Assembly (NCBI RefSeq): GCF_020103725.1
Contig: NZ_JAHXBG010000016.1
Span: 62,001-126,000, forward strand
Reading direction: 5' to 3'
Length of the DNA: 64,000 bases
DNA from: Hyalangium gracile
GTDB taxonomy: Bacteria; Myxococcota; Myxococcia; Myxococcales; Myxococcaceae
The notes under the pieces were generated by a model. The model worked only from the letters and a program-made list of their open reading frames with translations, ran no database searches and was not told the origin of the DNA. Of this stretch, positions 4,101 through 25,193 are shown piece after piece; position 1 is the first letter of the stretch; every line of letters starts with the position of its first letter. A program made the position numbers and the translations under genes.

Positions 4101-5052
4101 GCCGCGTCTTGCCTATCCCAGGAGACCCTAGAACTCGAATATTACTAGCGCGAGTCGTGCTGGGTGCTCTCAGCCACTCCATGATTTGACGCATTTGCTC
4201 GGTTCGACCGCTCGACGCTTGGAACTCGGTGTCGTGCGGGTATTCCTTCGACCATTCTATCCCAGCCTTCATGCTTCCGAATGCGTCGGCCGAACCTGTC
4301 AGAGCAGCGACCAATCGAGCGATACTTGGATAACGCCGTGCGTGTTCCTCCAAGCTTGACTGACCTACAAAAACCGCACGTTCTGTCTTCGCAACCTTCT
4401 TGAGGTCTTCTCTAACGCGAACTTGTCCACTGGCTGTATTGGGCTGTTGCGCTACAAGAATGTAACTACCGTTGATTTTCAGCGCCTTCTGGACAGCCGA
4501 CTTCTTAATTTCTCTTCTGATTTGCTCAAGTGTAGGTGCACGCTTTTCAGCCTTAAGTTGCCAGATAGCTACTCCTTCCGGAATCAACTTGGATGCTCGC
4601 GACGAAGAAGGAGGAACAGAGGTGCAGAAGTAAGTTGTAACTGCATCTGCTCCTTGGTCGGCAGCCTTCATTTCATCGCCGAAAGTCGCCTCTCCACTCG
4701 TGAATGATGTGTCATTTCTCTCACACCTGATCAGCGCCTTCACGAACTCCTTGAATTGCTCTTCAGGTAAATTGGCAATATCAGCGGCTCGCACCATAAA
4801 CGGAACCCGATAGGCAGCCTTCTGTAACCCTCCACCTTGAGAAGCAGACCTCACTGCACCACGCTGATTTGCCGCCTGTATATCTCCGCGACTCCTCCTT
4901 CTCGAACGCGGCTTTGCCTTGCCGATGGCTCTCTTGGCAGTCTTCTTGGCGGCTTTGGCAGTCTTCTTGGCGGCTTTCGTCGCAGTCTTCTTCGTCGTCA
5001 CGGCTGTTCCCGACTTCTCGCTGGCTGCTAGCTCAGTTAACGTACTAGCCAT
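1183..5052 (-). CDS. Giant STAND-type NTPase with nuclease-like N-terminus and histone-H1-like tail
   Basis: A 1289-residue protein, probably an anti-phage defence effector. Order: residues ~15-55 are rich in Lys/Ala/Thr/Arg (AAKKTAKAAKKTAK), like histone H1 or AlgP tails. Residues ~85-240 carry GADAV (D~136) and WQLKAEK (Q~165, K~167), a D...QxK pattern like Mrr-type PD-(D/E)xK nucleases. A P-loop GSPGIGKTR (~309-317) and Walker B ILVVDECRD (~357-365) follow. About 800 helical, HEAT/TPR-like residues complete the protein, the usual sensor part of STAND NTPases. ATG at 5052 is chosen over the TTG one codon upstream; ATG at 4797 would remove the tail. Base and codon use are visibly less G+C-rich than in the flanking genes, suggesting transfer. 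The next gene upstream on this strand is a second nuclease-like gene, 179 bp away. Nuclease activity and defence role are inference. Confidence 0.75.
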   Translation of the reverse strand: MASTLTELAASEKSGTAVTTKKTATKAAKKTAKAAKKTAKRAIGKAKPRSRRRSRGDIQAANQRGAVRSASQGGGLQKAAYRVPFMVRAADIANLPEEQFKEFVKALIRCERNDTSFTSGEATFGDEMKAADQGADAVTTYFCTSVPPSSSRASKLIPEGVAIWQLKAEKRAPTLEQIRREIKKSAVQKALKINGSYILVAQQPNTASGQVRVREDLKKVAKTERAVFVGQSSLEEHARRYPSIARLVAALTGSADAFGSMKAGIEWSKEYPHDTEFQASSGRTEQMRQIMEWLRAPSTTRASNIRVLGSPGIGKTRLVLEALRIAEILPVVLYAPGKNAIPGGFLAQAASSDWECILVVDECRDAELRELVSAFGHVFDRVRLISIGHIEDETEGTYGPETTVIAVKRLDSPSVERVLLAKHPSMPPERAAWVALKTGGYVKLALLLADAIASADNERLERLDEKRLVSDYLRVVLRGDESLKLFKMMALFTRVGFSGEVAQQFEYVARRLGVSRVDADFVRGEAERRGFVSRAEPYCYVTPELLQDWLVTVLLRDSFDATLRMLQGAPPELLNLAAPRLNRFVDEGVQRAQHLVGQLVLDSPTFAEIRSLENEHVARAVCRLARVATSSTAALVERWGRLVEINDVPVSVRRALVYLLLELLWHPDWFRFAFEQMLRLACDEAEPGVANNATGSIEAVFLIHLAPTQVSYVERVETAREFFARGVVPVRRLLVNAVASGLEIRETGIVSPLGRDLRKSWRPRSLGEKLAAKREALDFVSAALADDDSSIRGNAAKQIVQNFRSLLWVGLHVEALNALRLVGLGLPIVREELEHAIAWDAKRVTPEAMEDVKRLYAELPSDLLTEVRFATGGWDLLENEHSEFGLRQRPGLAELARRVLVSDLGDQVVSILLSEQAQNSGPFAYELGRADVGRNLWGSVMRQRGNSRAAWVASIYLSGNLHSRSQEQEFLLSLLSSGDRFFVEVGSRTLPGIEPSRAILEDVGERIRRHQIAPSWLAGIQLGGWTSRVDKVGLTVLMRALLEHSSEGVEVALDAARMAIHGKVSLDSDLLLELTERGLGVPRHSSHQWAKVARAALPKRAFEIGAMLLDNVNKHDWIAFDDEAVEVFKECIVAVGSKLAMRSLGHAVVGEEYNPRVVRLLGPEVVEALGVDAVLEWAQNKGKPAQAVLAMIVPTAPLPMVLAMFERFGASSTFASAFSAEFLSGTFWGPVSEHYAKQAHALEGWASEQTFPKQFRSWAAMLAARLRRNEVREREDERKKAELEKLDER

Positions 5053-5231
5053 CAATGACTTTGTCGGCTCTCTAATGGTCAGGAATTCCGCAATTCAGAC
5101 CTTCGCCTGATGTTTGCGCCCCACTCATCATTAGAGTGAACAATGCACACCAAGGTATATTCATTTTGCTCGAACAAATTGGACCGACTCCTGTCACTAT
5201 GCCTGCTCGCCCCACCAGAAATTCCCTCCCC

Positions 5232-6503
5232 TCACAGTGGCTGTGTCTCTTTGAGAGCTGCGGCCGCCTCGCTCGTCACTTCATCTTTGCTGGCCTTCGA
5301 GAGCTCCAGGCTCCGCAGAACGAGCGCCTTCAAAGCCCAGATTTGCGCGATGTTATCGATGTAGACGCGTGAGACCCCAAACGTGGAGGGAGCCTCTTCA
5401 ATCACGAAACCGGAAACGAGCTGCTTTGCTTCCTCTGCAGGCACCCATGTAACGATGCTCTTGCGCCTAGCGTTGCTGAAGAAGCGCAAGAACCACTTGG
5501 TGGGCTTGCGGTAGGAGATATTGAAGTAGCCCGTCGTGTCCCTGTAGAGGATCTCTTCCGGGTTGGTGCCCCCTTTGCCGCAGATGTCCCGAATGAGGCC
5601 GAAGAAGTCGAGTTCCTCCTGAGTCGTCTCGATGGCCATGCGCTGCTTCTCTTCAGCAGGAGTCGCTTTTGCATCCTCGAACGGTTTTGCTGATTCGAGC
5701 TTGATGACGTTCTGGGGCAGTTCCCCCGATGTCTCGGTTGTCTCGCGTAGGCGCTGGATGCGCTCCTTGAGCTTGTCGAGAAAGTCGTCGCCCATGACAC
5801 GGAGCAGAGCGGGTTCGATCGCTTCCTTCGCGACCTCGCCGAGCCGGGTCATCACCGCGCCCGTCCGCTTTCCTTTGTAGACCTCCTCCGTCAACCACCG
5901 CATGAAGCCCTCGTTCTCGGCAGGAGCCTTCAGGGCCGCCGCGAGCCTGTCGATCATCGCCTGGCGGTAGCGGCTGTTCTCCGCATCCGTCACCAGGGTC
6001 TCGGCATTGAAGGAATCCCGGCTGAACTTTGAGAGGAACTTCGCCACTTTGGACCAGTCGGTCTTGGTGTCCTCCAGAGAGAAGCTGAAGAAGGGTTCGC
6101 GATCCATCTGGTTCGGGTTTTCGAGATCACCGAAGAAGAGGTAGTGACACCCATCCGTAATTATCCCGAAATGGAGATCCGCCATCTGCGCGATGTACCG
6201 GGCCAGTTGTTGCGACTTGGCCATCAGGTCCGTGCCGAGTGGCTTCGTCTCGATCACCATCAAAGGCTTGGTGCCTGCCTGATCGAAGATGGCGAAGTCC
6301 ATCCGGTCCTGCAGGCGCTTCCCATCTCCCTGGGTGAACTCCGCCGCGTATTCGAGGCGAACTTCCTTGGGAGTATTGGGGTCGTAGCCAAGCAACCTGA
6401 TGAAGGGGACCACCAGCGCCATCTTGGCGGTCTCTTCGTTGGTGATGTACTCCCGGTTCTCGTTGAATCGCTTGACCAGATCGAGCAACTGGTTGGCTTC
6501 CAT
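5232..6503 (-). CDS. Stand-alone HsdR N-terminal-type restriction nuclease
   Basis: A 423-residue protein resembling the N-terminal nuclease domain of type I restriction R subunits (HSDR_N family). The visible PD-(D/E)xK core is D69 in RMDFAIFD and E85-T-K87 in VIETKPLG. The N-terminus (helical, then FIRLLGYDP) is typical of the family. There is no helicase motif, so the protein is a nuclease-like module only; residues ~200-423 form a second region I do not recognise. It is the first gene of a minus-strand pair with the STAND NTPase, so the two probably act together. Its G+C is intermediate between the NTPase gene and the genomic background. No methyltransferase or specificity subunit is nearby, which argues against a classical type I system. 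ATG at 6503 is the only good start. Confidence 0.75.
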   Translation of the reverse strand: MEANQLLDLVKRFNENREYITNEETAKMALVVPFIRLLGYDPNTPKEVRLEYAAEFTQGDGKRLQDRMDFAIFDQAGTKPLMVIETKPLGTDLMAKSQQLARYIAQMADLHFGIITDGCHYLFFGDLENPNQMDREPFFSFSLEDTKTDWSKVAKFLSKFSRDSFNAETLVTDAENSRYRQAMIDRLAAALKAPAENEGFMRWLTEEVYKGKRTGAVMTRLGEVAKEAIEPALLRVMGDDFLDKLKERIQRLRETTETSGELPQNVIKLESAKPFEDAKATPAEEKQRMAIETTQEELDFFGLIRDICGKGGTNPEEILYRDTTGYFNISYRKPTKWFLRFFSNARRKSIVTWVPAEEAKQLVSGFVIEEAPSTFGVSRVYIDNIAQIWALKALVLRSLELSKASKDEVTSEAAAALKETQPL

Positions 6504-12315: not shown

Positions 12316-13119
12316 ATGCGCACCGCGCTGGCGATCGCCCGCAAGGAGCTGTCCATCTACTTCACCACCCCGTGGGCCTACGCGGTCTTCACGGCGATGG
12401 TGGGCATCTCGTCGTTCTTCTTCATGGGCCTGCTGCAGACGTTCAAGGACGTGCAGGAGATGGCCCAGGCGTTCGGCTGGGGGCAGATGCCGCCGGACAC
12501 CGTGGCCTACCGCAACCTCACGGACGGCGTCGTCGTGCAATTGTGGGGCGTCATCCTCATCGTCACACTCTTCGTGGCACCGTTCCTCTCCATGCGGCTG
12601 TTCGCCGAGGAGAAGCGCAACAAGACGTTCGAGCTGCTGATGACCACGCCGGTGAGCCCGCTGGAGCTGGTGCTGGGCAAGTACCTGGGCGGGCTGGGCA
12701 TCATCGGCGCGACGCTGGGGCTGACGATCGTCTTCCCGCTCATGCTGTCTGCGTTCGGGTCCAGCGCCTCCGGCACGGTGCTGGAGTGGCCCACGGTGCT
12801 GCTGGGCTACGGCGCGGTGCTGCTGTGGGGCGCCACGTGCATGGCGGTGGGGATGTTCATCTCCTCGCTCACCGAGAGCCAGATGGTGGCCGCGCTGCTC
12901 ACCTTCGCGGTGATGCTGCCGTGGATGCTGCTGCGCGGGCTGGCGCAGAGCGCGGAGGAGCCCGTGCGCTCCTTCATCAACTACCTGGCCTTCGACGCGC
13001 AGCTGTCCAACCTGCTCAAGGGCGTGCTGGACCTGAAGGCGCTGGTGTTCTTCTTCTCCGTCATCCTCTTCTCGCTGCTGCTCACCCACCGCACGGTGGA
13101 AGCACAGCGCTGGGCCTAG
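12316..13119 (+). CDS. ABC-2 type permease (GldF-like)
   Basis: A 267-residue inner-membrane permease with about six hydrophobic segments. The N-terminal ARKELSIYFTTPWAY is the usual ABC-2 opening, and the central APFLSMRLFAEEKRNKTFELL motif with PVSPLELVLGKYLGG is diagnostic of the family. It forms the channel partner of the ATPase at 11551 and has the family's normal length. Good spacing to its neighbours (36 bp upstream, 18 bp downstream) supports one transcript. Function in motility is inferred only from the GldF resemblance. Confidence 0.93.
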   Translation: MRTALAIARKELSIYFTTPWAYAVFTAMVGISSFFFMGLLQTFKDVQEMAQAFGWGQMPPDTVAYRNLTDGVVVQLWGVILIVTLFVAPFLSMRLFAEEKRNKTFELLMTTPVSPLELVLGKYLGGLGIIGATLGLTIVFPLMLSAFGSSASGTVLEWPTVLLGYGAVLLWGATCMAVGMFISSLTESQMVAALLTFAVMLPWMLLRGLAQSAEEPVRSFINYLAFDAQLSNLLKGVLDLKALVFFFSVILFSLLLTHRTVEAQRWA

Positions 13120-16786: not shown

Positions 16787-16803
16787 ATGCAACTTGATTG
16801 CAT
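16787..16803. promoter_or_regulatory. Fur/Zur-like palindrome, left edge of metal-type locus
   Basis: ATGCAA-CTTGA-TTGCAT, six-base arms around a 5-bp centre, about 85 bp before the ATG at 16889. Most of it (TGCAACTT..TTGCA) recurs at 24266-24280. Read as a 7-1-7 repeat it has the geometry of Fur-family operators, but the sequence is not a consensus I can assign. Regulator and target are inference. Confidence 0.4.
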
Positions 16804-16888
16804 CTGGATCACTATGGCATCTATTGGCCCGTCCTCCACATCGGAGTGAAGACACCGGGCGACAGGTGCGCCCGAGGACCGACGAGCC

Positions 16889-17581
16889 ATGAGCCGAATC
16901 GTCTGGAGTGTGGGAGGTACCGGTCTGCTTGCGGCAGGAGCCCTTTCGCTCTGGCTGCGTCAGCCCGTCGAGCTGGCTCGGGACGAGTTCCCCGCCGAGC
17001 CCCTCCCCACCGCGGAGCCTCGAGCGCCTGGCCCCACCTCCGGCGCGGCCGCCCTCGCCGCCTCCCCCACGCCAGAGAGCAAGGCGCCCTCCTCTCCCAG
17101 GCGGACCACGAGCCCGCGTCCTGCGCCGGCCGCTCCGCCGCTGCCCTCCTCGCCAATGCAGGCCTCCGCGGTCGAGGACGCCCCCAGTCAGGCCACGCGG
17201 CTGCGCCACCGCATCGTCCAGGCGCTACGTGGCCAGTACCCCACGCCGCTGGCACGCCGGGATGCCGTCCTGGCCGAGTTCCTCTCCTCGGGCGAGAGCC
17301 AGGAGCCCTGGACGCAGCAGGCCCGCGAGGCGCTGGAGCGCTGGCGCGAGCAGATCAGCGCCTCCGTCCTGCCCGTCCGTGCCGGGCCCTCCTCCTGCTA
17401 CGCCGCCGGCTGCCTGGAGCGGGTGACGTTTCCTGACTCCGAGTCCTACGCGGAGGCCCAGCGGCGGGTGCCTCATCTCCAGCTCGGAGACGTCGGGCCA
17501 CACATGCAGCTCCCCCCCGAGTACCTGCCCTCGGGCGAGGTCGTCGTGTCCTGGGCCGTGCTGCGCCCCGAGGCCTTCTGA
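16889..17581 (+). CDS. Hypothetical single-span membrane protein
   Basis: A 230-residue protein I do not recognise. An N-terminal hydrophobic segment (GGTGLLAAGALSLWL) anchors it in the membrane or acts as a signal. A Pro/Ala/Ser-rich linker of about 70 residues follows, then a folded-looking domain (~100-230) with two cysteines in SSCYAAGCLERV that could form a disulfide in the periplasm. The start ATG at 16889 is the first in frame after the palindrome at 16787. The downstream lipoprotein gene begins 54 bp after its stop, so it could be the first gene of that group, but nothing in its sequence ties it to metal binding. Confidence 0.7.
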   Translation: MSRIVWSVGGTGLLAAGALSLWLRQPVELARDEFPAEPLPTAEPRAPGPTSGAAALAASPTPESKAPSSPRRTTSPRPAPAAPPLPSSPMQASAVEDAPSQATRLRHRIVQALRGQYPTPLARRDAVLAEFLSSGESQEPWTQQAREALERWREQISASVLPVRAGPSSCYAAGCLERVTFPDSESYAEAQRRVPHLQLGDVGPHMQLPPEYLPSGEVVVSWAVLRPEAF

Positions 17582-17635
17582 GCGCTCGCGTCCTTCCCGC
17601 GCCTGTCCCCCCCGTAGTGCCCAAGGAGTGTCACC

Positions 17636-18217
17636 ATGAAGATGGAGTCGCTGTTCAAGAAGGCCCTGCTCGCTTCCAGCCTCTCGCTGCTGCTCGTCGG
17701 CTGCGGCCAGACGATCGAGGCCTCCGAGGAGCCGGTGCTTGCCGAGGAGGAGTCCGCCGTCCAGGCCCTCAACACGTGCGAGGGCCCGGACGAGGAGGTC
17801 GTCGAGCACGCGTGCTACCACGGGGACTTCGGCCCGTTCACGGCCGTCACGGCGGCTTCGCTCGGCAGCACCACCTTCCCCAACGTCAACCTGCCACACA
17901 CCGCGTACAACATCACCCTGCCGACCCAGGGCTGGATCTACGCCGGCGCGGTCACGTACCGGCCCGCCGAGTCGGGTGAGTACGCCTTCCTGCTCTCTCG
18001 CCGGCGCGGCCTGAAGATCTACGACGGGACCACTGTCGTCTCGAAGGAGTGCTCGTACCTCATCGATGAGGCCGCCTGCGGCAGCCTGCGTCGGATGGTG
18101 ACGGCGGACCTGGAGGCGGGGAAGGTCTACCGCCTCGAGTTCCAGGCCGTGTTCCCGCAGAACGCCTCCTTCACCCTCGTCATCGAGGAGGCGGGAGAGC
18201 ACGACCACGAGGAGTAG
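17636..18217 (+). CDS. HACxH-family lipoprotein 1
   Basis: A 193-residue lipoprotein: signal peptide with lipobox LVGC (Cys23), an acidic linker, then a domain shared with the next three genes. Conserved points are HACYH (H58, C60, H62), the GPFTAVTA strand, H88 in HTAY, an LP..GW.YAG turn and a late Cys pair (KECSY, AACGS). The C-terminus ends in EHDHEE. The His/Cys pattern suggests metal binding or a buried disulfide; neither is shown. The leading position in a run of four paralogues implies local tandem duplication. I do not know a named family for this domain. No enzyme motif is visible. It is probably outer-membrane-anchored in the periplasm or on the surface. Confidence 0.8.
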   Translation: MKMESLFKKALLASSLSLLLVGCGQTIEASEEPVLAEEESAVQALNTCEGPDEEVVEHACYHGDFGPFTAVTAASLGSTTFPNVNLPHTAYNITLPTQGWIYAGAVTYRPAESGEYAFLLSRRRGLKIYDGTTVVSKECSYLIDEAACGSLRRMVTADLEAGKVYRLEFQAVFPQNASFTLVIEEAGEHDHEE

Positions 18218-18241
18218 TCGCTGCTGAACGCCGCCGGGTGG

Positions 18242-18273
18242 AGCCCACGGGTTTCCTCCAAGGTCCGTGGGCT
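18242..18273 (+). terminator. Inverted repeat after lipoprotein 1
   Basis: A perfect 9-bp stem, AGCCCACGG (18242-18250) with CCGTGGGCT (18265-18273), begins 25 bp after the stop at 18217. There is no T-run, so termination is possible but not certain; it may instead stabilise the 3' end or attenuate read-through. Confidence 0.5.
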
Positions 18274-18315
18274 TCCCCGGCGGTTCCCCTCCTCCCTTGC
18301 TCCGGGTTCCTGCCC

Positions 18316-18954
18316 ATGCGCCCTTCCCAGCGTCCCCTCGTCCTCGCCGCGTGCTGCGCGCTCCTCACCGCCTGTGGTGCGTCCGAGCTCCCTCCCTCCG
18401 AAGAGCCGCCCGCGCAGCTGGAGGATCCCTGCGCTCCCCACGGCCACATCCACCGCGAGCCCACCGGTGACTGGTGTCACTGCGACCGCGGCTACCGGGC
18501 GCCCGAGCAGCAGCTGGTGTGCGAGGTGGACCCTGACTACAAGCCTCGGGAGGGCTTCGACTTCGGGGATGACGGCGTCCACGCCTGCTGGCACGTGGAC
18601 AACGGCCCCTACGCCACGGTGACGGCCTCCGAGAGCCGCATGCCGCGAGCGGACGCCTTCCACACGCTCTACACGGTGAACCTGCGGCCGGTGGAGGGCG
18701 GCCAGTACACCGGCACCTTCCAGTTCAAGGCCTTCGGCACCGGGGACTTCATCGTCTACCTGAGCCAGAACGTGCCCTTCGCCGTGCGCGAGGGCGAGCG
18801 GGTGGTGGCATCCGTCGCGGAGAAGCCCACCACGGCCTGCTCCGGCCTCCAGCACATGATCGGCCTCGAGCTGACCGAGCGCGTCGTCTACACCTTCACG
18901 CTCGGCCCCACCTCCCTGGAGCAGCTCCGGATGGTGACCGAGTACTTCCCGTGA
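18316..18954 (+). CDS. HACxH-family lipoprotein 2 with EGF-like Cys module
   Basis: A 212-residue lipoprotein; ATG at 18316 gives a signal peptide with lipobox LTAC (Cys20), so the longer GTG frame from 18238 is rejected. Residues ~39-69 form a small Cys/His-rich module (CAPHGHIHREP, DWCHCDRGYR, VC) like short EGF-type units of myxobacterial lipoproteins. The paralogous domain follows: HACWH (H89, C91, H93), NGPYATVTAS, H116 in HTLY, GGQYTGTF, and TACSGLQHM. Order and spacing match lipoproteins 1, 3 and 4. The extra His residues (HGHIH) make metal binding plausible. Function unknown. Confidence 0.8.
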   Translation: MRPSQRPLVLAACCALLTACGASELPPSEEPPAQLEDPCAPHGHIHREPTGDWCHCDRGYRAPEQQLVCEVDPDYKPREGFDFGDDGVHACWHVDNGPYATVTASESRMPRADAFHTLYTVNLRPVEGGQYTGTFQFKAFGTGDFIVYLSQNVPFAVREGERVVASVAEKPTTACSGLQHMIGLELTERVVYTFTLGPTSLEQLRMVTEYFP

Positions 18955-19074
18955 CGCGCTCGAGGGCCCTGGCTCTCGCGCGTCGCACGCCCTGCCTCAC
19001 CGCAGCACCCCGTGGAGGACGACGGCGCTCATGGCGAGCGCCGTGCTTCCACGGCTCACCGAAAGGGACATGAC

Positions 19075-19785
19075 ATGAAGATGAAGACGCGGAACAGCTG
19101 GGCCGCCGCACTGGGCCTCGCCCTGGCGGCCTGTGGCCCCATCGAGTCCATGGAGGAGACCCAGGCCCCCGCTCAGGAGGAGCAGGGCCTGATGGAGGCC
19201 GGCTGCACGGCGCTGGGCCCCGTGGTCATCGGCCACGCATGCGGGCACATCAACAACGGCCCCTATGCCTCGGTCACGGCGACCAGCTCAAGCACGGATC
19301 CCAGCATGCCGGGCATCAACACCACGCACACGGCCTACACCGTGACGCTGCCGGGCTCGGGCAGCTCCTATACCGGCACCGTGAAGTTCGTGCCGAACCG
19401 CACCAACTCGGCGTGGGCCTTCTTCGTCTCCTCCAACATCACCGTGGTGCTCAAGGACGCGTCGGGCAACACGGTGACGCAGGCCTTCTCGGCGCCGCAG
19501 GCCATCAGCCAGTCGGGCTGCGGCCTGAGCCAGGTGGTCGTCTACAACAACCTCACCAAGGATGCGACGTACAGGCTGACGCTGGGGCCCTCCACCTCGA
19601 GCACGGTGCAGGTCATCCCGGAGCGCGTGGAGGACAACCGCGTCTATTACTTCCAGGACGCGGACGGTGACGGCTACGGCAACACCAACGTCTTCTCGCT
19701 GACCGCGTGCACGCCGCCCACCGGATACGTGCTCGACGACACCGACTGCAACGACTCCAACCCCGCCATCCACACGGGCTGCTAG
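19075..19785 (+). CDS. HACxH-family lipoprotein 3 with MopE-like C-terminal motif
   Basis: A 236-residue lipoprotein. ATG at 19075 follows an AAAGGGA ribosome site; lipobox LAAC (Cys20). The shared domain has HACGH (H54, C56, H58), NGPYASVTAT, H85 in HTAY, and SSYTGTVKF, closest to lipoprotein 2. The last ~40 residues, DADGDGYGNT, then TPPTGYV and DTDCNDSNPAIH, match the repeat motif of the Cu-binding MopE-type family (PF11617 pattern). That motif is common in myxobacterial surface proteins and is more often calcium-like, so copper binding is only a possibility. It follows lipoprotein 2 after 120 bp. Confidence 0.82.
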   Translation: MKMKTRNSWAAALGLALAACGPIESMEETQAPAQEEQGLMEAGCTALGPVVIGHACGHINNGPYASVTATSSSTDPSMPGINTTHTAYTVTLPGSGSSYTGTVKFVPNRTNSAWAFFVSSNITVVLKDASGNTVTQAFSAPQAISQSGCGLSQVVVYNNLTKDATYRLTLGPSTSSTVQVIPERVEDNRVYYFQDADGDGYGNTNVFSLTACTPPTGYVLDDTDCNDSNPAIHTGC

Positions 19786-19792
19786 CCCGCGC

Positions 19793-19850
19793 GAAGCCCC
19801 GCTCCATCGGGCTTCCTTCCGGGGCGTCCTTCCACCGAGGGGCGCCCCGG
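19793..19850 (+). terminator. Two consecutive inverted repeats after lipoprotein 3
   Basis: GAAGCCC (19793-19799) pairs with GGGCTTC (19809-19815), and CCGGGGCG (19819-19826) pairs with CGCCCCGG (19843-19850). They lie between the stop at 19785 and the next ATG at 19884. No T-run follows, so these are hairpins that may limit read-through rather than proven terminators. Confidence 0.45.
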
Positions 19851-19883
19851 TCCTTCACCCTGGTTCCCCCTCGAGGTCCTGGA

Positions 19884-20864
19884 ATGCGCCGTCTCCCTCT
19901 TGCCCTCCTGCTCATCGCGGCCTGCTCGCTGCCACTCATCCCCGGCTGCGGCGACGATGACACCTCCCCCCAGCCTCCGAGCCAGCCCGCGCCCGATGGA
20001 GGTACCCCGGATGGTGGAGGCACTGGAACGCCGGACGCCGGGCCCGACGCGGGAGCGGGCGACACCACGGCTCCCAGCGTGATCTCCTCCAGCCCCGCCG
20101 AGGGCACCACGGGCCTCTACCCCGTCGAGGTGTACTACCGGACCACCGGGCAGGCAGGGCTGTCCGAGCGCAAGGTCTTCACCGTGGAGTTCAGCGAGCC
20201 CATGGACACCTCCGTCATCCAGGCCACGCTGTTGAACCTGACGGACAGCACGGCCACGCCGCGTTCCGTTCAGGGCACCTGGGCCGCGGACGGGCGGAAG
20301 CTGACCCTCGTCGCGCTCCAGCCCGATGAGGGCGGCCCCGTGCTCGAGGAGGACAGCTCCTACGCCCTGGACCTGAAGGGCTTCCGGGATCCATCGGGCA
20401 ACCCGCTCGATGCGACCCATCCCGGGCTGGGAGATGGCCGGCTCGACTTCAAGACGGGCGCCAACGATCCGCTGCTCAACCATGCCTGCGGGCACACGCT
20501 CGTCGACACCGTGCTGCCCGTGAGCGCGTCCGCGACTCCCACGGGGACGGTGCCTCGCACGGATCAGACGCACAAGCTCTATGAGGTGACGATGCCGCAG
20601 GAGGGCAGCGGGTACTCCGGCTACACCCGCCTGCGGCTGGCGCCCGAGACCGCCTATGTGCTCTTCCTCGACCACGAGGTCTCCGTGGCCCTGAGCACGT
20701 CCACGGACGGTGCCCCCGTGGATTCCTCGATCGAGACAGCCCCCCCCGCATGCTCGGGCATCACGCACCGCGTCCTCTTCACGGCGCCGGATGCCCCCGA
20801 GGTTCGCGCGCGCTTCACCTCGCCAGACTCGAAGCTCCGAGTGATCCTCGAAGAATCCTTCTGA
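19884..20864 (+). CDS. HACxH-family lipoprotein 4 with Ig-like (SbsA-type) domain
   Basis: A 326-residue lipoprotein; ATG at 19884 gives a signal peptide and lipobox IPGC (Cys22), followed by a Pro/Asp/Gly linker. Residues ~60-190 form an SbsA-type Ig-like domain (TAPSVISSSPAEGTTG, FTVEFSEPMDTS, GNPLDATHPGLGDG). The shared domain follows: HACGH (H200, C202, H204), H230 in THKLY, GSGYSGY, and PACSGITHRV. The Ig module is absent from the other three, so the family domain was joined to different N-terminal parts. The gene stops 9 bp short of the convergent gene at 20874. Function unknown. Confidence 0.8.
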   Translation: MRRLPLALLLIAACSLPLIPGCGDDDTSPQPPSQPAPDGGTPDGGGTGTPDAGPDAGAGDTTAPSVISSSPAEGTTGLYPVEVYYRTTGQAGLSERKVFTVEFSEPMDTSVIQATLLNLTDSTATPRSVQGTWAADGRKLTLVALQPDEGGPVLEEDSSYALDLKGFRDPSGNPLDATHPGLGDGRLDFKTGANDPLLNHACGHTLVDTVLPVSASATPTGTVPRTDQTHKLYEVTMPQEGSGYSGYTRLRLAPETAYVLFLDHEVSVALSTSTDGAPVDSSIETAPPACSGITHRVLFTAPDAPEVRARFTSPDSKLRVILEESF

Positions 20865-20873
20865 GCCTCCTCT

Positions 20874-21704
20874 TCAGGGGGCGAAGGGCTCCCAGGCGCT
20901 TGTGAAGGCGGTGTGCCGTCGCAGGTTGATGAAGAGGGCGCGGTGCACCTGGCTCTCGGGTGGAGCCGTCACCCGCCCTCCTCCCTCCGGCACTTCCAGC
21001 CGCTCGAAGAGCGCCCCGGAGAACCAGGCGTGGGGCCGCGGCTCCACGATGAACAGTCCATCGTCGTCCAGCTCCACCTGGCTGGGCACGAACTCCACGC
21101 GCTGCAGCTCCACCGGCGGCGGGAAGTCCAGCTCCACCCGGAACATCACCTCCCGCGCCTCGCGTGAGGCCGTCCCCTCCAGCACCACCGAGTGCCCGCC
21201 CAGCGACGTCGCCTCCGGGCCCAGCACGCTGGCCGGCTGGAGCAGCAACGAGAACGAGCGCACCTCCCCGGCGATGCCCGGGGAACGGCCGAGCACCTGC
21301 GTGGCCCCGTCTCCCCCGAGGAGATCGAACACCACCTCCCGGTCCCACTCCCCGAGCACCCGTCCCCCGGAGAAGAAGGTGTCGTGCGCGTGCGCGGTGG
21401 GGAGCAGCAGCTCGCCCAGCCCGCGCCACAGCCCTCGGACCGTGGTGCCCGCCAGGGGCGAGGGGTTCTCGAACAGGTAGATGGGCCCCAGCAGCATCCG
21501 CGCGGCCGTCAGCTCCACCCGCCAGCCCGTATCCGTCGTGAAGCGGCCCACCTGGGGCTCTCCGGGCGCACGCGCGGCGCGCAGCCCCATGTGGAACATC
21601 ACCGAGCGGCCTCCCGTGGCCGAGAGCCCGCACCGCAGCCCCGTCAGGCCGCCCAGCAGGCCTGCTCCCAACACCTGCGCGAAGGCCCTGCGCGTCGTCT
21701 TCAT
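20874..21704 (-). CDS. Exported HAHD-motif protein, partner of TonB receptor
   Basis: A 276-residue exported protein. The N-terminus TTRRAFAQVLG resembles a twin-arginine signal and is followed by a possible lipobox (GLRC, Cys25). The body has a beta-rich look; TGWRVELTAARMLLGPIYL parallels the SVRFTKYLVSVGDFTL segment of the lipoprotein at 24297, suggesting a distant shared fold. H105 and H107 in TAHAHDTFF could bind metal. Its ATG overlaps the stop of the receptor gene (21701-21704), so it is translationally coupled to the receptor and likely works with it, for example as a periplasmic ligand-binding or delivery protein. I do not recognise a named family. Confidence 0.75.
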   Translation of the reverse strand: MKTTRRAFAQVLGAGLLGGLTGLRCGLSATGGRSVMFHMGLRAARAPGEPQVGRFTTDTGWRVELTAARMLLGPIYLFENPSPLAGTTVRGLWRGLGELLLPTAHAHDTFFSGGRVLGEWDREVVFDLLGGDGATQVLGRSPGIAGEVRSFSLLLQPASVLGPEATSLGGHSVVLEGTASREAREVMFRVELDFPPPVELQRVEFVPSQVELDDDGLFIVEPRPHAWFSGALFERLEVPEGGGRVTAPPESQVHRALFINLRRHTAFTSAWEPFAP

Positions 21705-24232
21705 GGGTGCTCCTCCTCGAAGTCCAGGTACACGGTCAGCGTTCCCCGCACGGTGCGAGGAGCTCCGGCGGAGAAGTGGCGCGTGGCCAGCAGCGACGCG
21801 GGCGCGTCCGGGCCGCGGAAGTTGGAGACGTAGTTGAACTCGGCCTCACGCCACCGAGCGTCCAGCAGGTTCTCCACCGTCAGCCCGAGCTCCACCGCCT
21901 GCCACCGGCCTCGCACCGCCGCGTCGAACAGGAAGATGGGCTCGCTGAAGCGCCCCAGCGGCAGGGGCTTGGGGCCGATGCTGCCGTGCCCGAGCGCCAC
22001 GTTCCATCCCAGCCGCTCGCCCCGCAGCGTCACCTCCCCGCGCAGGGATGCATCCACCCGACCGAGGAGCTGGGGAATGTAGGGGAGCACCTCTCCCTCG
22101 AAGAGTCTCCATGGTGAGGCACCGGGCGCCGGCAGCGAGGCTCGCGCCCACGCGACGCTCGCCAGCACATCCAGTCGCTCGTGCAGCAGGAAGCGCGCCT
22201 GCACGAAGGCGCCCACCCGTTGAGAGGCGCCCACCGGCTGGTTGCGGCCCGCCTCTTCATTGAACACGAAGTCCTGCGAGACGCGGGTGGCGAAGAACGA
22301 GCCCCGGGTCTCCAGCGTGAGCCCGCCATGGCTGCCCGTGTAGCTCAGCCCCGTCTCCGCCGACGTCACCCGCGCGAAGGGAGCGAACTCCGAGTCCGAC
22401 AAGGCCGCCGCATCGCTGGAGCGCGCGCCCAGGCCCACGCTGGTGAGCCAGGAGAGCCGCTCCGTCAGCCGGGCCTCCGCGGTCGCCCGAGGGCTCAGCG
22501 TGAGGCCGTATGCCTCGATGGCCTCTGACGGAATCCGCTCGCCCTGCCGATCCTCCGAGGGTCGGTTCTCGTCCTCCACCGCGAAGAGGAAGCTGTCCAT
22601 CCTCACCCCGCCGCGCGCCGACAGCCAGGAGAGGGGCGCCGCCTTCAAGGACGCGTAGGCGCCCAGGTTCGTCACCCGCACCTGGTTGTCGAAGAGCGTG
22701 AGGTAGGGCGCCCCGCCCCGATCCCTCAGCCGGCGCGAGCGCGTCCGCACATTGTCGAAGCGCCCGACGTAGCCCAGCTCCAGGGGCTGCGGCTGTCCCC
22801 ACACCGTCCCGCCCGGGGTGTAGCGCCCGCGCAGGCCCAGGGTCGTGCCCGTGTAGAACTGCTCCGTGTTGTCGCCGCGCTGGGACTCGCCCTCGGGGGG
22901 CACGTCGTTGAGGAAGCCCGTGAAGTTCTCCCGGACGCGCATCTGCCTCAGGACGACGAAGCCCTGCTGGAGCAGGCGCCCTCCGCCTGCCAGGCGGGTC
23001 ATCAGCTCCACCGAGCCGAGGTGCCGCTGCCCGGCGCCGCCCTGGTTCGGGTCATGGAGGCAGAAGAACTGCGCGTCCTCGTCCGCGTCGCAGTCCAGCC
23101 GCCCCGCGACCTGGTCCGTCTCCCGGATGACGCCCGCCGAGGCATAGCGCGCCCCATAGCTGGCCCCGAGCACGCGGATGCGCGCCTCGTTCCCGACGCG
23201 GAACTCTCCCTGGGCCATGAGCCCCGCGTTCGCATAGGCCCGGTTGGGACCAAAGCCGTGTCCCTGGCGCAGCAGCAGGCCCACGAAGGTGGCCTCGCTC
23301 GTCTCTCGAGGTCCCCACACCAGCGCCAGCCGCCGGGAGGTGAAGCTGCCGTAGCTGGCGGACACCATCAGCCCCCGCCGCTTCAGCGCGAGCTGGTACT
23401 CCACCGTCCCCGCGACGCCGAAGTCTCCCTGCGCCGGATCGTACGGCCCCTCCGTGACTCGCAGCGAGTCCACCAGCTCCGGGATGATGAAGTAGGTGTC
23501 CGAGTAGCCATGGCCGTGCGCGTGCGACACCTCGTTGAGGGGCACGCCGTTGAGGCGGAACTCCACGTCCTTGCCCTCGCCCGCGTCGAAGCCCCGGAGG
23601 AACACCGTCTCCGCGTGGCCCTCTCCTCCGTGGTTGGCCAGCATCACGCCCGGTGCCAGCAGCAGCAGCTCCGTGGCGGAGTTGCGCGGTACGTCCGCGA
23701 GCTGTCCCACCTCGATCTGGAAGTCCCCTGCCGCCGCGGGCGGAGGCCGCGCCCCCTGGCCTCGCACCAGCGTGGAGAAGGACCGGGACGCTGGAACTGG
23801 CGGGCTCTCCTCGGCTCCTGGCGAGCTCGGCTCCGAGCCAGCCACGGCTGCCTCCGGACTGGAGGGCTCCGGCACCGGGAGCTCGGATGAGGTGGCAACG
23901 GGCAAAGGCGGTGGCGGCGCGAACGTCACGGGGATGTCCGCCTGGACCTCCACGGGCACCTCGCCCCTGCGCGCCGGGAGGAACCGCCAGCGCGTCGCCG
24001 CTCCCATGGCCGCACGATCCAGCACCCCCCCGGCGGACTCGCGCACCTCCACCCGCGACACGCTGCCTTCCGTGTCGATGGTGACCCGCAGCAGCACGGT
24101 GGCGGCGCTCTCCAGGCGCGGAGCGTCCTCGGGCAGCACCGGCGGAGCCGCCTCCTGGGGCACCGGCGGGGACACAGGCACCTCCACAGGCGCCGCGCCC
24201 AATGCCCACAACAGCACGAATGAAGTCCACAC
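21701..24232 (-). CDS. TonB-dependent receptor fused to a TonB C-terminal domain
   Basis: An 843-residue outer-membrane receptor. After a short signal peptide, residues ~40-105 form a TonB-type domain (SAATVLLRVTIDTEGSVSRV, AATRWRFLPARRG), followed by a Pro/Ser linker, a plug domain (~165-290; TELLLLAPGVMLAN, ETVFLRGFDAGEG, LNGVPLNEV) and a beta-barrel ending in VYLDFEEEHP. The plug carries HAHGHGY (237-243), a His cluster suggestive of metal ligand handling. A TonB domain at the N-terminus of a receptor is an unusual arrangement also seen in other myxobacteria. The start is GTG 24232; no ATG is available upstream. Divergent from 24297, with a palindrome in the 64-bp gap. The substrate is inferred, not shown. 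Confidence 0.85.
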   Translation of the reverse strand: MWTSFVLLWALGAAPVEVPVSPPVPQEAAPPVLPEDAPRLESAATVLLRVTIDTEGSVSRVEVRESAGGVLDRAAMGAATRWRFLPARRGEVPVEVQADIPVTFAPPPPLPVATSSELPVPEPSSPEAAVAGSEPSSPGAEESPPVPASRSFSTLVRGQGARPPPAAAGDFQIEVGQLADVPRNSATELLLLAPGVMLANHGGEGHAETVFLRGFDAGEGKDVEFRLNGVPLNEVSHAHGHGYSDTYFIIPELVDSLRVTEGPYDPAQGDFGVAGTVEYQLALKRRGLMVSASYGSFTSRRLALVWGPRETSEATFVGLLLRQGHGFGPNRAYANAGLMAQGEFRVGNEARIRVLGASYGARYASAGVIRETDQVAGRLDCDADEDAQFFCLHDPNQGGAGQRHLGSVELMTRLAGGGRLLQQGFVVLRQMRVRENFTGFLNDVPPEGESQRGDNTEQFYTGTTLGLRGRYTPGGTVWGQPQPLELGYVGRFDNVRTRSRRLRDRGGAPYLTLFDNQVRVTNLGAYASLKAAPLSWLSARGGVRMDSFLFAVEDENRPSEDRQGERIPSEAIEAYGLTLSPRATAEARLTERLSWLTSVGLGARSSDAAALSDSEFAPFARVTSAETGLSYTGSHGGLTLETRGSFFATRVSQDFVFNEEAGRNQPVGASQRVGAFVQARFLLHERLDVLASVAWARASLPAPGASPWRLFEGEVLPYIPQLLGRVDASLRGEVTLRGERLGWNVALGHGSIGPKPLPLGRFSEPIFLFDAAVRGRWQAVELGLTVENLLDARWREAEFNYVSNFRGPDAPASLLATRHFSAGAPRTVRGTLTVYLDFEEEHP

Positions 24233-24265
24233 GATGGGCGCAGATAACCCACCCTCGACTTGACT

Positions 24266-24280
24266 TGCAACTTCGTTGCA
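24266..24280. promoter_or_regulatory. Fur/Zur-like palindrome between divergent receptor and lipoprotein genes
   Basis: TGCAAC-TTC-GTTGCA, a perfect six-base inverted repeat (7-1-7 geometry with one mismatch), within the 64-bp gap separating GTG 24232 and ATG 24297. It closely matches the site at 16787-16803. It would cover a promoter of either gene. Assignment to a Fur-family repressor is inference. Confidence 0.45.
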
Positions 24281-24296
24281 TTTACTTCACCGCTAC

Positions 24297-25193
24297 ATGA
24301 GACCTCCAGACATCCTCGGCGGAGTGGCGCGCGGCCTCCTCGCGGTGACGTTCCTGCTCTCGGGCGCCGCGTGCTCTCCGGTGGCCATGGGTGAGGCGCG
24401 GGTGATGATGAGCGGCGAGGAGGGCGCCCAGGACGGCTATTCCAGCCACCTCTTCCAGGACGACTGGTCCGTCCGGTTCACGAAGTACCTGGTGTCCGTG
24501 GGGGACTTCACCCTCACCTCCAGCTCCGGACAGACACACAGCTCCAGCCGGCACGTCCTGGTGGACCTGCAGAAGGGCGACGTGGACCTGACGCGGCTGG
24601 CGGAGGTGCCCGCGGGGCGCTGGAACGTGGGCTTCGCGGTCCGCCCGCCGGATGACGCCACCGAGCTGCCCGACGGCCAGGTCTCCGCCGCGGATCTCGA
24701 GCTCATGCGCTCGCGCGGCTACAGCTACTGGCTGGAGGGCGAGGCCGTGAAGGTGGGCCAGGGTGTCTTCCGCTTCGCCTTCGGCTTTCCGGTCAACGCG
24801 CGCATGGTGGACTGCATCAACGGCGTGGACGGGACGCAGGGCATCATCGTCCCGGAGAACTCCATCGCCGAGGCGGAGGTCACCATCCACGCCGAGCACA
24901 TGTTCTACGATCGGCTGGGGACCCACCGGGGCGTGCAGCTGCGCTTCGAGGCCTTCGCCGCCTCCGCCGGCCCCGACAAGCTCATCACCTCCGAGGGTCT
25001 GGCCGGCCAGCAGCTCCTGGATCTGCGGGGAATGAACGGGGGGGAGCTGCTCGACGCGGCAGGCAAGCCCGTCATCTATGAGCCGGGCGCCTACGCCGTC
25101 CAGACGCTCTGGGAGTTCGTGACCCAGAGCATCGTGGACCAGGCCCACCTCAATGGCGGTGGTGTGTGCGCGGTGGTGCCGCTCACCCGCTGA
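24297..25193 (+). CDS. Lipoprotein divergent from TonB receptor, MbnP-like layout
   Basis: A 298-residue lipoprotein. ATG at 24297 gives a signal peptide with a GAAC lipobox; the TTG at 24276 would start inside the palindrome and is rejected. The body is beta-rich: WSVRFTKYLVSVGDFTL, HVLVDLQKGDVDLTRLAEV, PAGRWNVGFAVRPPDD. This order (strand, 'vDL', PAG.W) resembles MbnP-type periplasmic proteins in layout, but the similarity is by eye only. Cys in MVDCINGVDG and near the end (GGGVCAVV) may pair. Its position opposite the receptor and the shared palindrome suggest that they are co-regulated. Substrate unknown. Confidence 0.72.
   Translation: MRPPDILGGVARGLLAVTFLLSGAACSPVAMGEARVMMSGEEGAQDGYSSHLFQDDWSVRFTKYLVSVGDFTLTSSSGQTHSSSRHVLVDLQKGDVDLTRLAEVPAGRWNVGFAVRPPDDATELPDGQVSAADLELMRSRGYSYWLEGEAVKVGQGVFRFAFGFPVNARMVDCINGVDGTQGIIVPENSIAEAEVTIHAEHMFYDRLGTHRGVQLRFEAFAASAGPDKLITSEGLAGQQLLDLRGMNGGELLDAAGKPVIYEPGAYAVQTLWEFVTQSIVDQAHLNGGGVCAVVPLTR

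What the first reader, a model, noticed from the sequence alone, without database searches (positions are those of the whole stretch)
16787..25193. Candidate metal-acquisition locus framed by two similar palindromes
HACxH lipoproteins, a TonB receptor with a HAHGHGY plug motif, an exported HAHD protein coupled to it and an MbnP-like-layout lipoprotein all lie between two Fur/Zur-like palindromes (TGCAACTT..TTGCA). Together they read like outer-membrane capture, surface binding and periplasmic handling of a metal, possibly copper or zinc.
Basis: inference. Interest (0 to 1): 0.7.

Follow-up and report, generated by a model that had tools for sequence, protein, structure and literature searches.

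The report
Zinc-scarcity uptake locus of myxobacteria
A soil predator bacterium carries a cluster of surface proteins that is very probably switched on when zinc runs short and helps it capture zinc; the control sites and most of the proteins appear to be undescribed versions of a known kind of system.

Summary
The observed features are there: four HACxH lipoproteins, a TonB-dependent receptor and an overlapping HAHD gene lie between two like palindromes; the MbnP-like lipoprotein gene starts 16 bp outside the second. TGCAA-N5-TTGCA occurs three times in the 11.7-Mb genome, twice here; the third and a one-mismatch fourth bracket genes for Cys-poor S14 and L33 and the zinc GTPase ZigA. Palindrome 2 is kept within one mismatch in 18 of 18 orthologous regions examined (0.08 expected). 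In relatives such sites also front S14/L28, S18/L33 and AztD-like genes, near a Fur-family gene whose orthologue here is 70% identical. So the palindromes are most likely myxobacterial Zur boxes (TTGCAAC-N3-GTTGCAA) and the locus a zinc-starvation acquisition system. Zinc is favoured over copper, although p8 has the MbnP (copper-protein) fold (7L6G, Z 9.6): it is no PF20243 member by HMM and lacks the MbnP tryptophan motif. The HACxH protein modelled has a PPC-like domain behind its Cys/His motif. Against: own znuA and zur show no site, and many one-mismatch palindromes lie near no recognised zinc gene. Nothing has been measured. Verdict: new variant of a known kind.

The parts
16788..16802 (.). 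Palindrome 1, predicted Zur operator of the p1-HAC genes (TGCAACTTGATTGCA; p1 ATG 86 bp downstream)
   Evidence: a site within one mismatch lies upstream of p1/HAC1 in 12 of 17 orthologous clusters
16889..17581 (+). p1: conserved protein of unknown function with an N-terminal hydrophobic stretch (my reading), first gene after palindrome 1
   Evidence: no Pfam family over its cut-off
17636..18217 (+). p2: HACxH lipoprotein 1 (HACYH; tail EHDHEE)
18316..18954 (+). p3: HACxH lipoprotein 2; predicted PPC/collagen-binding-domain-like beta-sandwich with HACWH just before it
19075..19785 (+). p4: HACxH lipoprotein 3 (HACGH)
19884..20864 (+). p5: HACxH lipoprotein 4 (Big_5 domain, then a HACGH domain)
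20874..21704 (-). p6: exported HAHD protein with RRAF signal region (my reading), overlaps the end of p7 by 4 nt
   Evidence: Ala104, Ala106 and His107 invariant in 14 sequences; the first His of HAH is not kept in the paralogues
21701..24232 (-). p7: TonB-dependent receptor with N-terminal TonB_C domain and HAHGHGY plug motif
24266..24280 (.). Palindrome 2, predicted Zur operator between divergent p7 and p8 (33 bp and 16 bp from their starts)
   Evidence: 18 of 18 orthologous intergenic regions examined keep it within one mismatch, 0.08 expected
24297..25193 (+). p8: MbnP-fold lipoprotein with invariant His198, His201, His284 and Cys173/Cys291

Best explanation
A Zur-controlled zinc-acquisition locus. 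Inferred: with enough zinc the Fur-family protein Zur (L005 product, contig C10) binds the TTGCAAC-N3-GTTGCAA palindromes and represses p7-p6, p8 and p1-p5; when zinc falls it lets go. The TonB-dependent receptor p7 then imports zinc, or a zinc carrier, across the outer membrane; lipoproteins p2-p5 (HACxH) and p8 (MbnP fold) bind zinc at the outer membrane and hand it over; p6 binds zinc on the periplasmic side; the ZnuA-type ABC transporter (contig C11) finishes uptake. Like palindromes elsewhere in the genome release zinc-sparing ribosomal proteins and the ZigA chaperone. Shown by computation: genes, palindromes, their conservation and neighbours, predicted folds. Inferred: binding, repression, metal, direction of transfer.
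For: Own genome: 3 exact palindromes in 11.7 Mb, two here; the third and a one-mismatch fourth bracket a contig-C31 cluster with S14 lacking CxxC pairs, L33 without cysteine and ZigA (659.3 bits, cut-off 600), while a type-Z S14 is on C30. Palindrome 2 in 18 of 18 regions, 0.08 expected. G073 (L098): two palindromes between p1-HAC and S14-L28, two more before S18-L33, then a Fur-family gene; own L005 is 70% identical to it. G075 (L099): that gene directly upstream of p1. G135 (L053): the module in one 13-kb stretch with an AztD relative (E 9e-53, under its cut-off), ZigA (643.6 bits, over it) and DUF1826, a one-mismatch palindrome ahead of the AztD relative. Labilithrix L151 and Sorangium L152/L153: module with zigA and palindromes, plus zur and the methyltransferase (L151) or L33 (L152).
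Against: No expression, binding or metal data. In 11 kb round own znuA the best site has 4 of 14 mismatches, and none that good lies within 9 kb round own zur. Of 13 own sites within one mismatch (control 1), 9 lie beside no zinc gene I could recognise. Of 10 strict 17-bp sites in 145 genomes (control 0), 7 are not at recognised zinc genes. In 5 of 17 clusters no site within one mismatch precedes p1/HAC1. The L005 protein's best NCBIfam match is ferric Fur (35.4 bits, cut-off 146), Zur lower (23.9, cut-off 167).
Confidence: 0.87

Rival explanations
1. Copper acquisition: the MbnP-fold lipoprotein and His-rich receptor import copper or a copper chelate, as in methanobactin operons.
For: p8 model matches MbnP best in Foldseek and VIA-align (Z 9.6, 187 residues, 3.9 A); weak profile match to true MbnP (probability 46); 2 of 31 HAC-alignment members match a MopE-type metal-binding motif.
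Against: Palindromes and neighbours are zinc-type; p8 is not PF20243 by HMM, lacks the W-x-W motif kept in 18 of 18 PF20243 sequences and has no diheme (CCP_MauG) partner among the nine genes scanned.
Confidence: 0.05
2. Another Fur-family metal circuit, such as nickel (Nur-like) or iron.
For: The operator register equals the Streptomyces Nur-box tTGCaa-N5-ttGCAA (passage of PMC3919588); L005 scores higher on Fur than on Zur models.
Against: Zinc-independent ribosomal proteins, ZigA and AztD-like genes share the operator; the other Fur-family protein of the genome is much closer to iron Fur models (119 bits).
Confidence: 0.04
3. Same Zur regulon, but the cargo of p7 is a zinc-carrying chelate or zinc protein, possibly from prey, rather than the free ion; HACxH/PPC-like lipoproteins dock that cargo.
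For: Four paralogous lipoproteins, the one modelled having a domain like collagen-binding domains; Zur-controlled receptors for zincophores exist (passages of PMC6103462).
Against: No zincophore synthesis gene among the nine genes scanned; nothing tested about cargo.
Confidence: 0.25
4. Palindrome 2 is a transcription terminator hairpin.
For: The scan lists 24266-24280 as terminator-like; 2 found in the region, 1.8 expected.
Against: It lies between divergent gene starts, and the half-sites are kept while the centre varies in 18 of 18 regions.
Confidence: 0.01

Closest known systems
Zur regulons with TonB-dependent zinc receptors (Caulobacter znuK/L/M, Pseudomonas znuD; table of review PMC6103462, passages; PMC4176598, listing only)
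   Same: Fur-family palindrome in front of a TonB receptor; C-minus ribosomal proteins and a COG0523 GTPase in the regulon
   Different: Operator TTGCAAC-N3-GTTGCAA; receptor accompanied by HACxH lipoproteins, HAHD protein and MbnP-fold lipoprotein, none of which I saw in the table passages
Streptomyces coelicolor Zur regulon
   Same: rpmB2, rpmG2, rpsN2, rpsR2 and yciC (COG0523) in the review table; L28, L33, S14, S18 in G073 and L33, S14, ZigA in the own genome
   Different: Gram-positive, no outer membrane (recalled)
C-minus ribosomal protein paralogues of Myxococcus xanthus (PMC3087516, passages)
   Same: That paper lists C-minus S4 with S14, L33 and L28 paralogues for M. xanthus DK1622
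   Different: It searched with Zur profiles of Actinobacteria, Bacillus and gamma-proteobacteria and reports no sites near these paralogues outside Salinispora; the operator proposed here is of another kind
MbnP / PF20243 of methanobactin operons (PDB 7L6G)
   Same: Predicted fold of p8
   Different: No PF20243 match, no W-x-W motif, no diheme partner seen, zinc-type regulation
Nur box of Streptomyces (tTGCaa-N5-ttGCAA, PMC3919588)
   Same: Same half-site letters and spacing
   Different: Nickel regulator; here C and G inside the half-sites and a zinc-type regulon
ZepA zinc exoprotein of Anabaena (PMC10957091)
   Same: Zur-controlled extracytoplasmic zinc-uptake protein
   Different: PEP-CTERM protein found in other phyla; the term myxo does not occur in its main text

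Membership tests
Zur regulon | Shared palindromic operator in front of several zinc-homeostasis genes | tested here: met
Zur regulon | Contains C-minus ribosomal protein paralogues and a COG0523 GTPase | tested here: met
   S14, L33, ZigA bracketed by sites in the own genome; S14, L28, S18, L33 in G073
Zur regulon | Zinc ABC transporter under the same operator | tested here: not met
   no site with fewer than 4 mismatches in 11 kb round own znuA; in L154 znuABC, zur, a distant module and a one-mismatch site are neighbours
Zur regulon | Zinc-dependent binding by Zur and derepression on zinc depletion | not testable with these tools
   needs EMSA and RNA-seq
Zur protein | Equivalog-level match to a Zur model | tested here: not met
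   L005 matches PF01475 over cut-off but NCBIfam Zur PRK11639 only at 23.9 bits against 167, Fur at 35.4 against 146; L098 likewise under all cut-offs
TonB-dependent receptor | Plug domain | tested here: met
   PF07715 43.4 bits, cut-off 23.9
TonB-dependent receptor | Beta-barrel domain | tested here: inconclusive
   no barrel model reported for p7; reported for the paralogue in L057; p7 not modelled
MbnP (PF20243) | HMM match | tested here: not met
   0 of 15 members at E up to 5; the own-genome search at E up to 1 finds 3 other proteins, not p8
MbnP (PF20243) | Fold | tested here: met
   7L6G top match, Z 9.6, 187 residues, 3.9 A; next entry 7.4
MbnP (PF20243) | Conserved W-x-W-x3-Y motif (link to the modified tryptophan recalled) | tested here: not met
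   invariant in 18 PF20243 sequences, absent among conserved p8 columns
AztD | NF038015 over its cut-off (L053 neighbour) | tested here: not met
   179.2 bits against 400; E 9.1e-53, so a relative
PPC / collagen-binding domain | Fold of the HACxH domain (p3) | tested here: met
   5IKU Z 10.0, 104 residues, 2.6 A
PPC / collagen-binding domain | Pfam match | tested here: not met
   no PPC family among matches of 31 members at E up to 1

The most novel reading that the evidence does not exclude
Myxobacteria use a zinc-capture machine at the outer membrane not described elsewhere: a TonB receptor served by a set of paralogous HACxH/PPC-like surface lipoproteins, a HAHD protein and an MbnP-fold lipoprotein in which a three-histidine zinc site has replaced the copper/kynurenine site of MbnP, all under a myxobacterial Zur box; it may strip zinc from prey proteins.
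Probability: 0.4. Interest if true: 0.75.

Novelty: new variant of a known kind. Interest (0 to 1): 0.58.

Why it matters
It gives a testable Zur operator and regulon for a group in which a 2009 search with known Zur profiles found no sites near the ribosomal paralogues (PMC3087516, passages). In the rows I saw, no title or abstract start concerned a myxobacterial Zur regulon: 6 of 6 papers, 1 of 1, 20 of 24, 10 of 77, open-access library only; the Zur review's main text lacks the terms myxo and deltaproteobacteria. It gives a likely metal and role to four uncharacterised protein families (p1, p6, p8, HACxH), and suggests that the MbnP fold, known from copper handling, also serves zinc, which bears on how metal choice changes within one fold.

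Tried and rejected
Copper by MbnP membership: rejected on HMM, motif and neighbours, though the fold is shared. Sequence searches of the PDB with p8 alone and with p8, HAC and p6 profiles gave no row or only weak rows (best E 0.049), MbnP not among them. p6 against true MbnP by profile: no support; p6 against p8: weak (probability 61). A strict 17-bp operator over 145 genomes was too narrow: 9 genomes, 10 sites, three at p7-p8 and seven at genes I could not tie to zinc (no ORF was called in L083). The sigma-70 scan found none. Paralogous module: 17 of the 20 loci fetched were checked in about 600 bp upstream of p7, best 2-4 mismatches; L060, L065 and L071 were not given to that check, and L060 has a one-mismatch site inside its p7 match. 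For the 18-region count, 20 loci were fetched; L053, L054 and L055 were left out because p7 and p8 are not divergent there. p6 and p7 were not folded (both prediction jobs went to p8 and p3). Literature: PMC6103462, PMC2770081, PMC3919588, PMC7010606 and PMC3087516 passages only; PMC10957091 abstract, passages and section 11; other papers search listing only.

Full report
1. What is there. Between 16788 and 25193 the window holds two palindromes and eight genes. Palindrome 1 (16788-16802) precedes p1 and four lipoprotein genes p2-p5, each with a HACxH motif. Palindrome 2 (24266-24280) lies between divergent p7 (TonB-dependent receptor, -) and p8 (lipoprotein, +), so p8 is just outside the pair; p6 (HAHD) follows p7 with a 4-nt overlap. 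Signal peptides and lipoboxes are my reading of the translations. p7 has a TonB_C domain and a Plug domain over Pfam cut-offs; its best NCBIfam hit is the N-terminal part of the myxochelin receptor MxcH, far under the cut-off.

2. Are the palindromes more than chance? In the window 2 matches against 0.02 expected. In the own genome (G000, 11,725,557 bases) TGCAAN5TTGCA occurs 3 times, control pattern 0. With TGCAAYNNNRTTGCA and one mismatch there are 13 sites, control 1: 4 at the two loci discussed here and 9 where I recognised no zinc gene. Between p7 and p8, 18 of 18 regions (the window and 17 loci) keep it within one mismatch, 7 exactly; shuffles predict 0.08. These 17 come from 20 loci fetched; the other three (L053-L055) have no divergent p7-p8 region. 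By my count 56 of 145 genomes of the order, own included, have a p8 relative at 47% identity or more. The extended pattern reads roughly GAMTTGCAAC-N3-GTTGCAW. Upstream of p1/HAC1 a site within one mismatch is present in 12 of 17 clusters and missing in L092, L094, L097, L100 and L101; several clusters have further sites between HAC genes.

3. Which metal? (a) Own contig C31 (L121): the third exact palindrome stands about 40 bp before a UbiE-like methyltransferase gene. 4.5 kb on, a one-mismatch palindrome stands 13 bp before a minus-strand ORF for a small exported-looking protein with HAHRFCPEHQ (38% identical to one in the gene row of own znuA); 0.6 kb behind that palindrome, on the same strand, come L33 without cysteines, ZigA (659.3 bits, cut-off 600), an L28 remnant (34 of 78 residues) and S14 with no CxxC pairs. 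That these are one transcript is not shown. A type-Z S14 with CxxC pairs lies on C30. (b) G073 (L098): two palindromes between p1-HAC and S14-L28, two more 5' of S18-L33, then a Fur-family gene on the same strand. In G075 (L099) the Fur-family gene is directly upstream of p1 with two palindromes between them. (c) G135 (L053): p6, p7, a HAC protein and p8 in one stretch with an AztD relative (E 9.1e-53, 179 bits against 400), a MerC-like His-rich protein (under cut-off), a CobW-type GTPase, ZigA (643.6 bits) and DUF1826; a palindrome with one mismatch precedes the AztD relative. The AztD relative is in 2 of 145 genomes. (d) Named genomes (79 loci, the best of 124 relatives): Labilithrix L151 has zur, zigA and the same methyltransferase (73%) with palindromes; Sorangium L152 and L153 have HAC genes and zigA, L152 also L33, with palindromes; Polyangiaceae L154 has a more distant module beside znuA, zur, znuC and znuB with a one-mismatch site. 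Gene sets of this kind are what the review's table lists for Zur regulons (PMC6103462, passages).

4. Regulator. The genome has 2 proteins over the FUR cut-off. L004 scores best on iron Fur models (119 bits, under cut-off). L005 scores low on every model, Fur (35.4) above Zur (23.9), but is 70% identical to the Fur-family protein of the G073 zinc cluster, against 23% for L004. I propose L005 as Zur; this rests on context, not on a model match.

5. Proteins. p8 was modelled from 46 sequences (pLDDT 93.5). Foldseek's five best PDB rows are MbnP chains (7L6G); VIA-align gives Z 9.6 over 187 residues at 3.9 A, next entry 7.4. By sequence it is not PF20243: 0 of 15 members at E up to 5, while three other proteins of this genome are. 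Profile against profile gives probability 46. Invariant or nearly so in 46 p8 sequences are His198, His201, His284, Cys173, Cys291, Tyr261 and Asp205; a three-His zinc site is inference. The MbnP W-x-W-x3-Y motif (18 of 18) is absent. p3 was modelled from 31 HAC sequences (pLDDT 88): residues 96-210 match collagen-binding/PPC-type domains (Z 10.0), with HACWH at residues 89-93 just before; Cys91, His93 and Cys175 are invariant, His89 and His116 nearly so.

6. Mechanism, graded. Shown by computation: gene order, operators, operators shared with zinc-sparing genes, fold predictions. Inferred from family knowledge: Zur repression with zinc, TonB-driven outer-membrane import, later steps by the ZnuA-type transporter. 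Speculative: metal ligands, order of hand-over, whether the cargo is free zinc or a carrier.

7. Against. Own znuA and zur carry no recognisable site; many one-mismatch sites and seven of ten strict sites in 145 genomes are not near zinc genes I recognised, so the palindrome alone is not specific. No experiment supports any step.

8. Known or new. PMC3087516 (2009; passages) already lists C-minus S4, S14, L33 and L28 paralogues for M. xanthus and reports that known Zur profiles found no sites near them; the operator proposed here would fill that gap. In the rows seen no title or abstract start concerned a myxobacterial Zur regulon. The kind of system is known; the operator, the lipoprotein set and the MbnP fold in a zinc setting make it a new variant. 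The window's genome is probably a Hyalangium: G082, same genus, has a contig of the same length as H. versicolor NZ_JAHXBF010000020.1.

Noticed in passing
L055-L075 (and L155-L202), no counterpart found in the window's genome (one p8 match): A second, paralogous TonB receptor / HAHD / p8-like module, mostly on one strand, without the palindrome where checked; in L057 an unmatched His-rich 139-aa ORF lies just upstream. Its metal is open.
   Followed up: partly
L121:3055-3912 (own contig C31): UbiE-like methyltransferase behind the third exact palindrome; a 73% identical gene lies in the zinc cluster of Labilithrix (L151). Role in zinc starvation unknown.
   Followed up: partly
L121:7093-7512 and L106:6668-7090: Two related small exported-looking proteins with HAHRFCPEHQ (38% identical), one 13 bp behind the fourth palindrome, one in the gene row of znuA; no Pfam match for the L106 one.
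   Followed up: partly
L121 about 4690-5300: Remnant of an L28 paralogue and a frame resembling DUF1826 (by eye) between the S14 and ZigA genes; looks decayed.
   Followed up: partly
L086:632-1477 (own contig C11): An exported protein with, by eye, a p6/p8-like layout sits right behind znuA; no Pfam or NCBIfam match.
   Followed up: no
G126:C33 (L083, site at 13077): A strict 17-bp palindrome 3.9 kb from a weak p8 match (E 1.5e-6) in a 2.7-Mb genome.
   Followed up: no
L130 and L171: Records titled Comamonas sp. KCTC 72670 carry myxobacterial-type loci (p8 at 69% in L130); probably mislabelled or mixed.
   Followed up: no
L203, L204, L205 (own contigs C9 and C12): Three true PF20243 MbnP-family proteins elsewhere in this genome.
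   Followed up: partly
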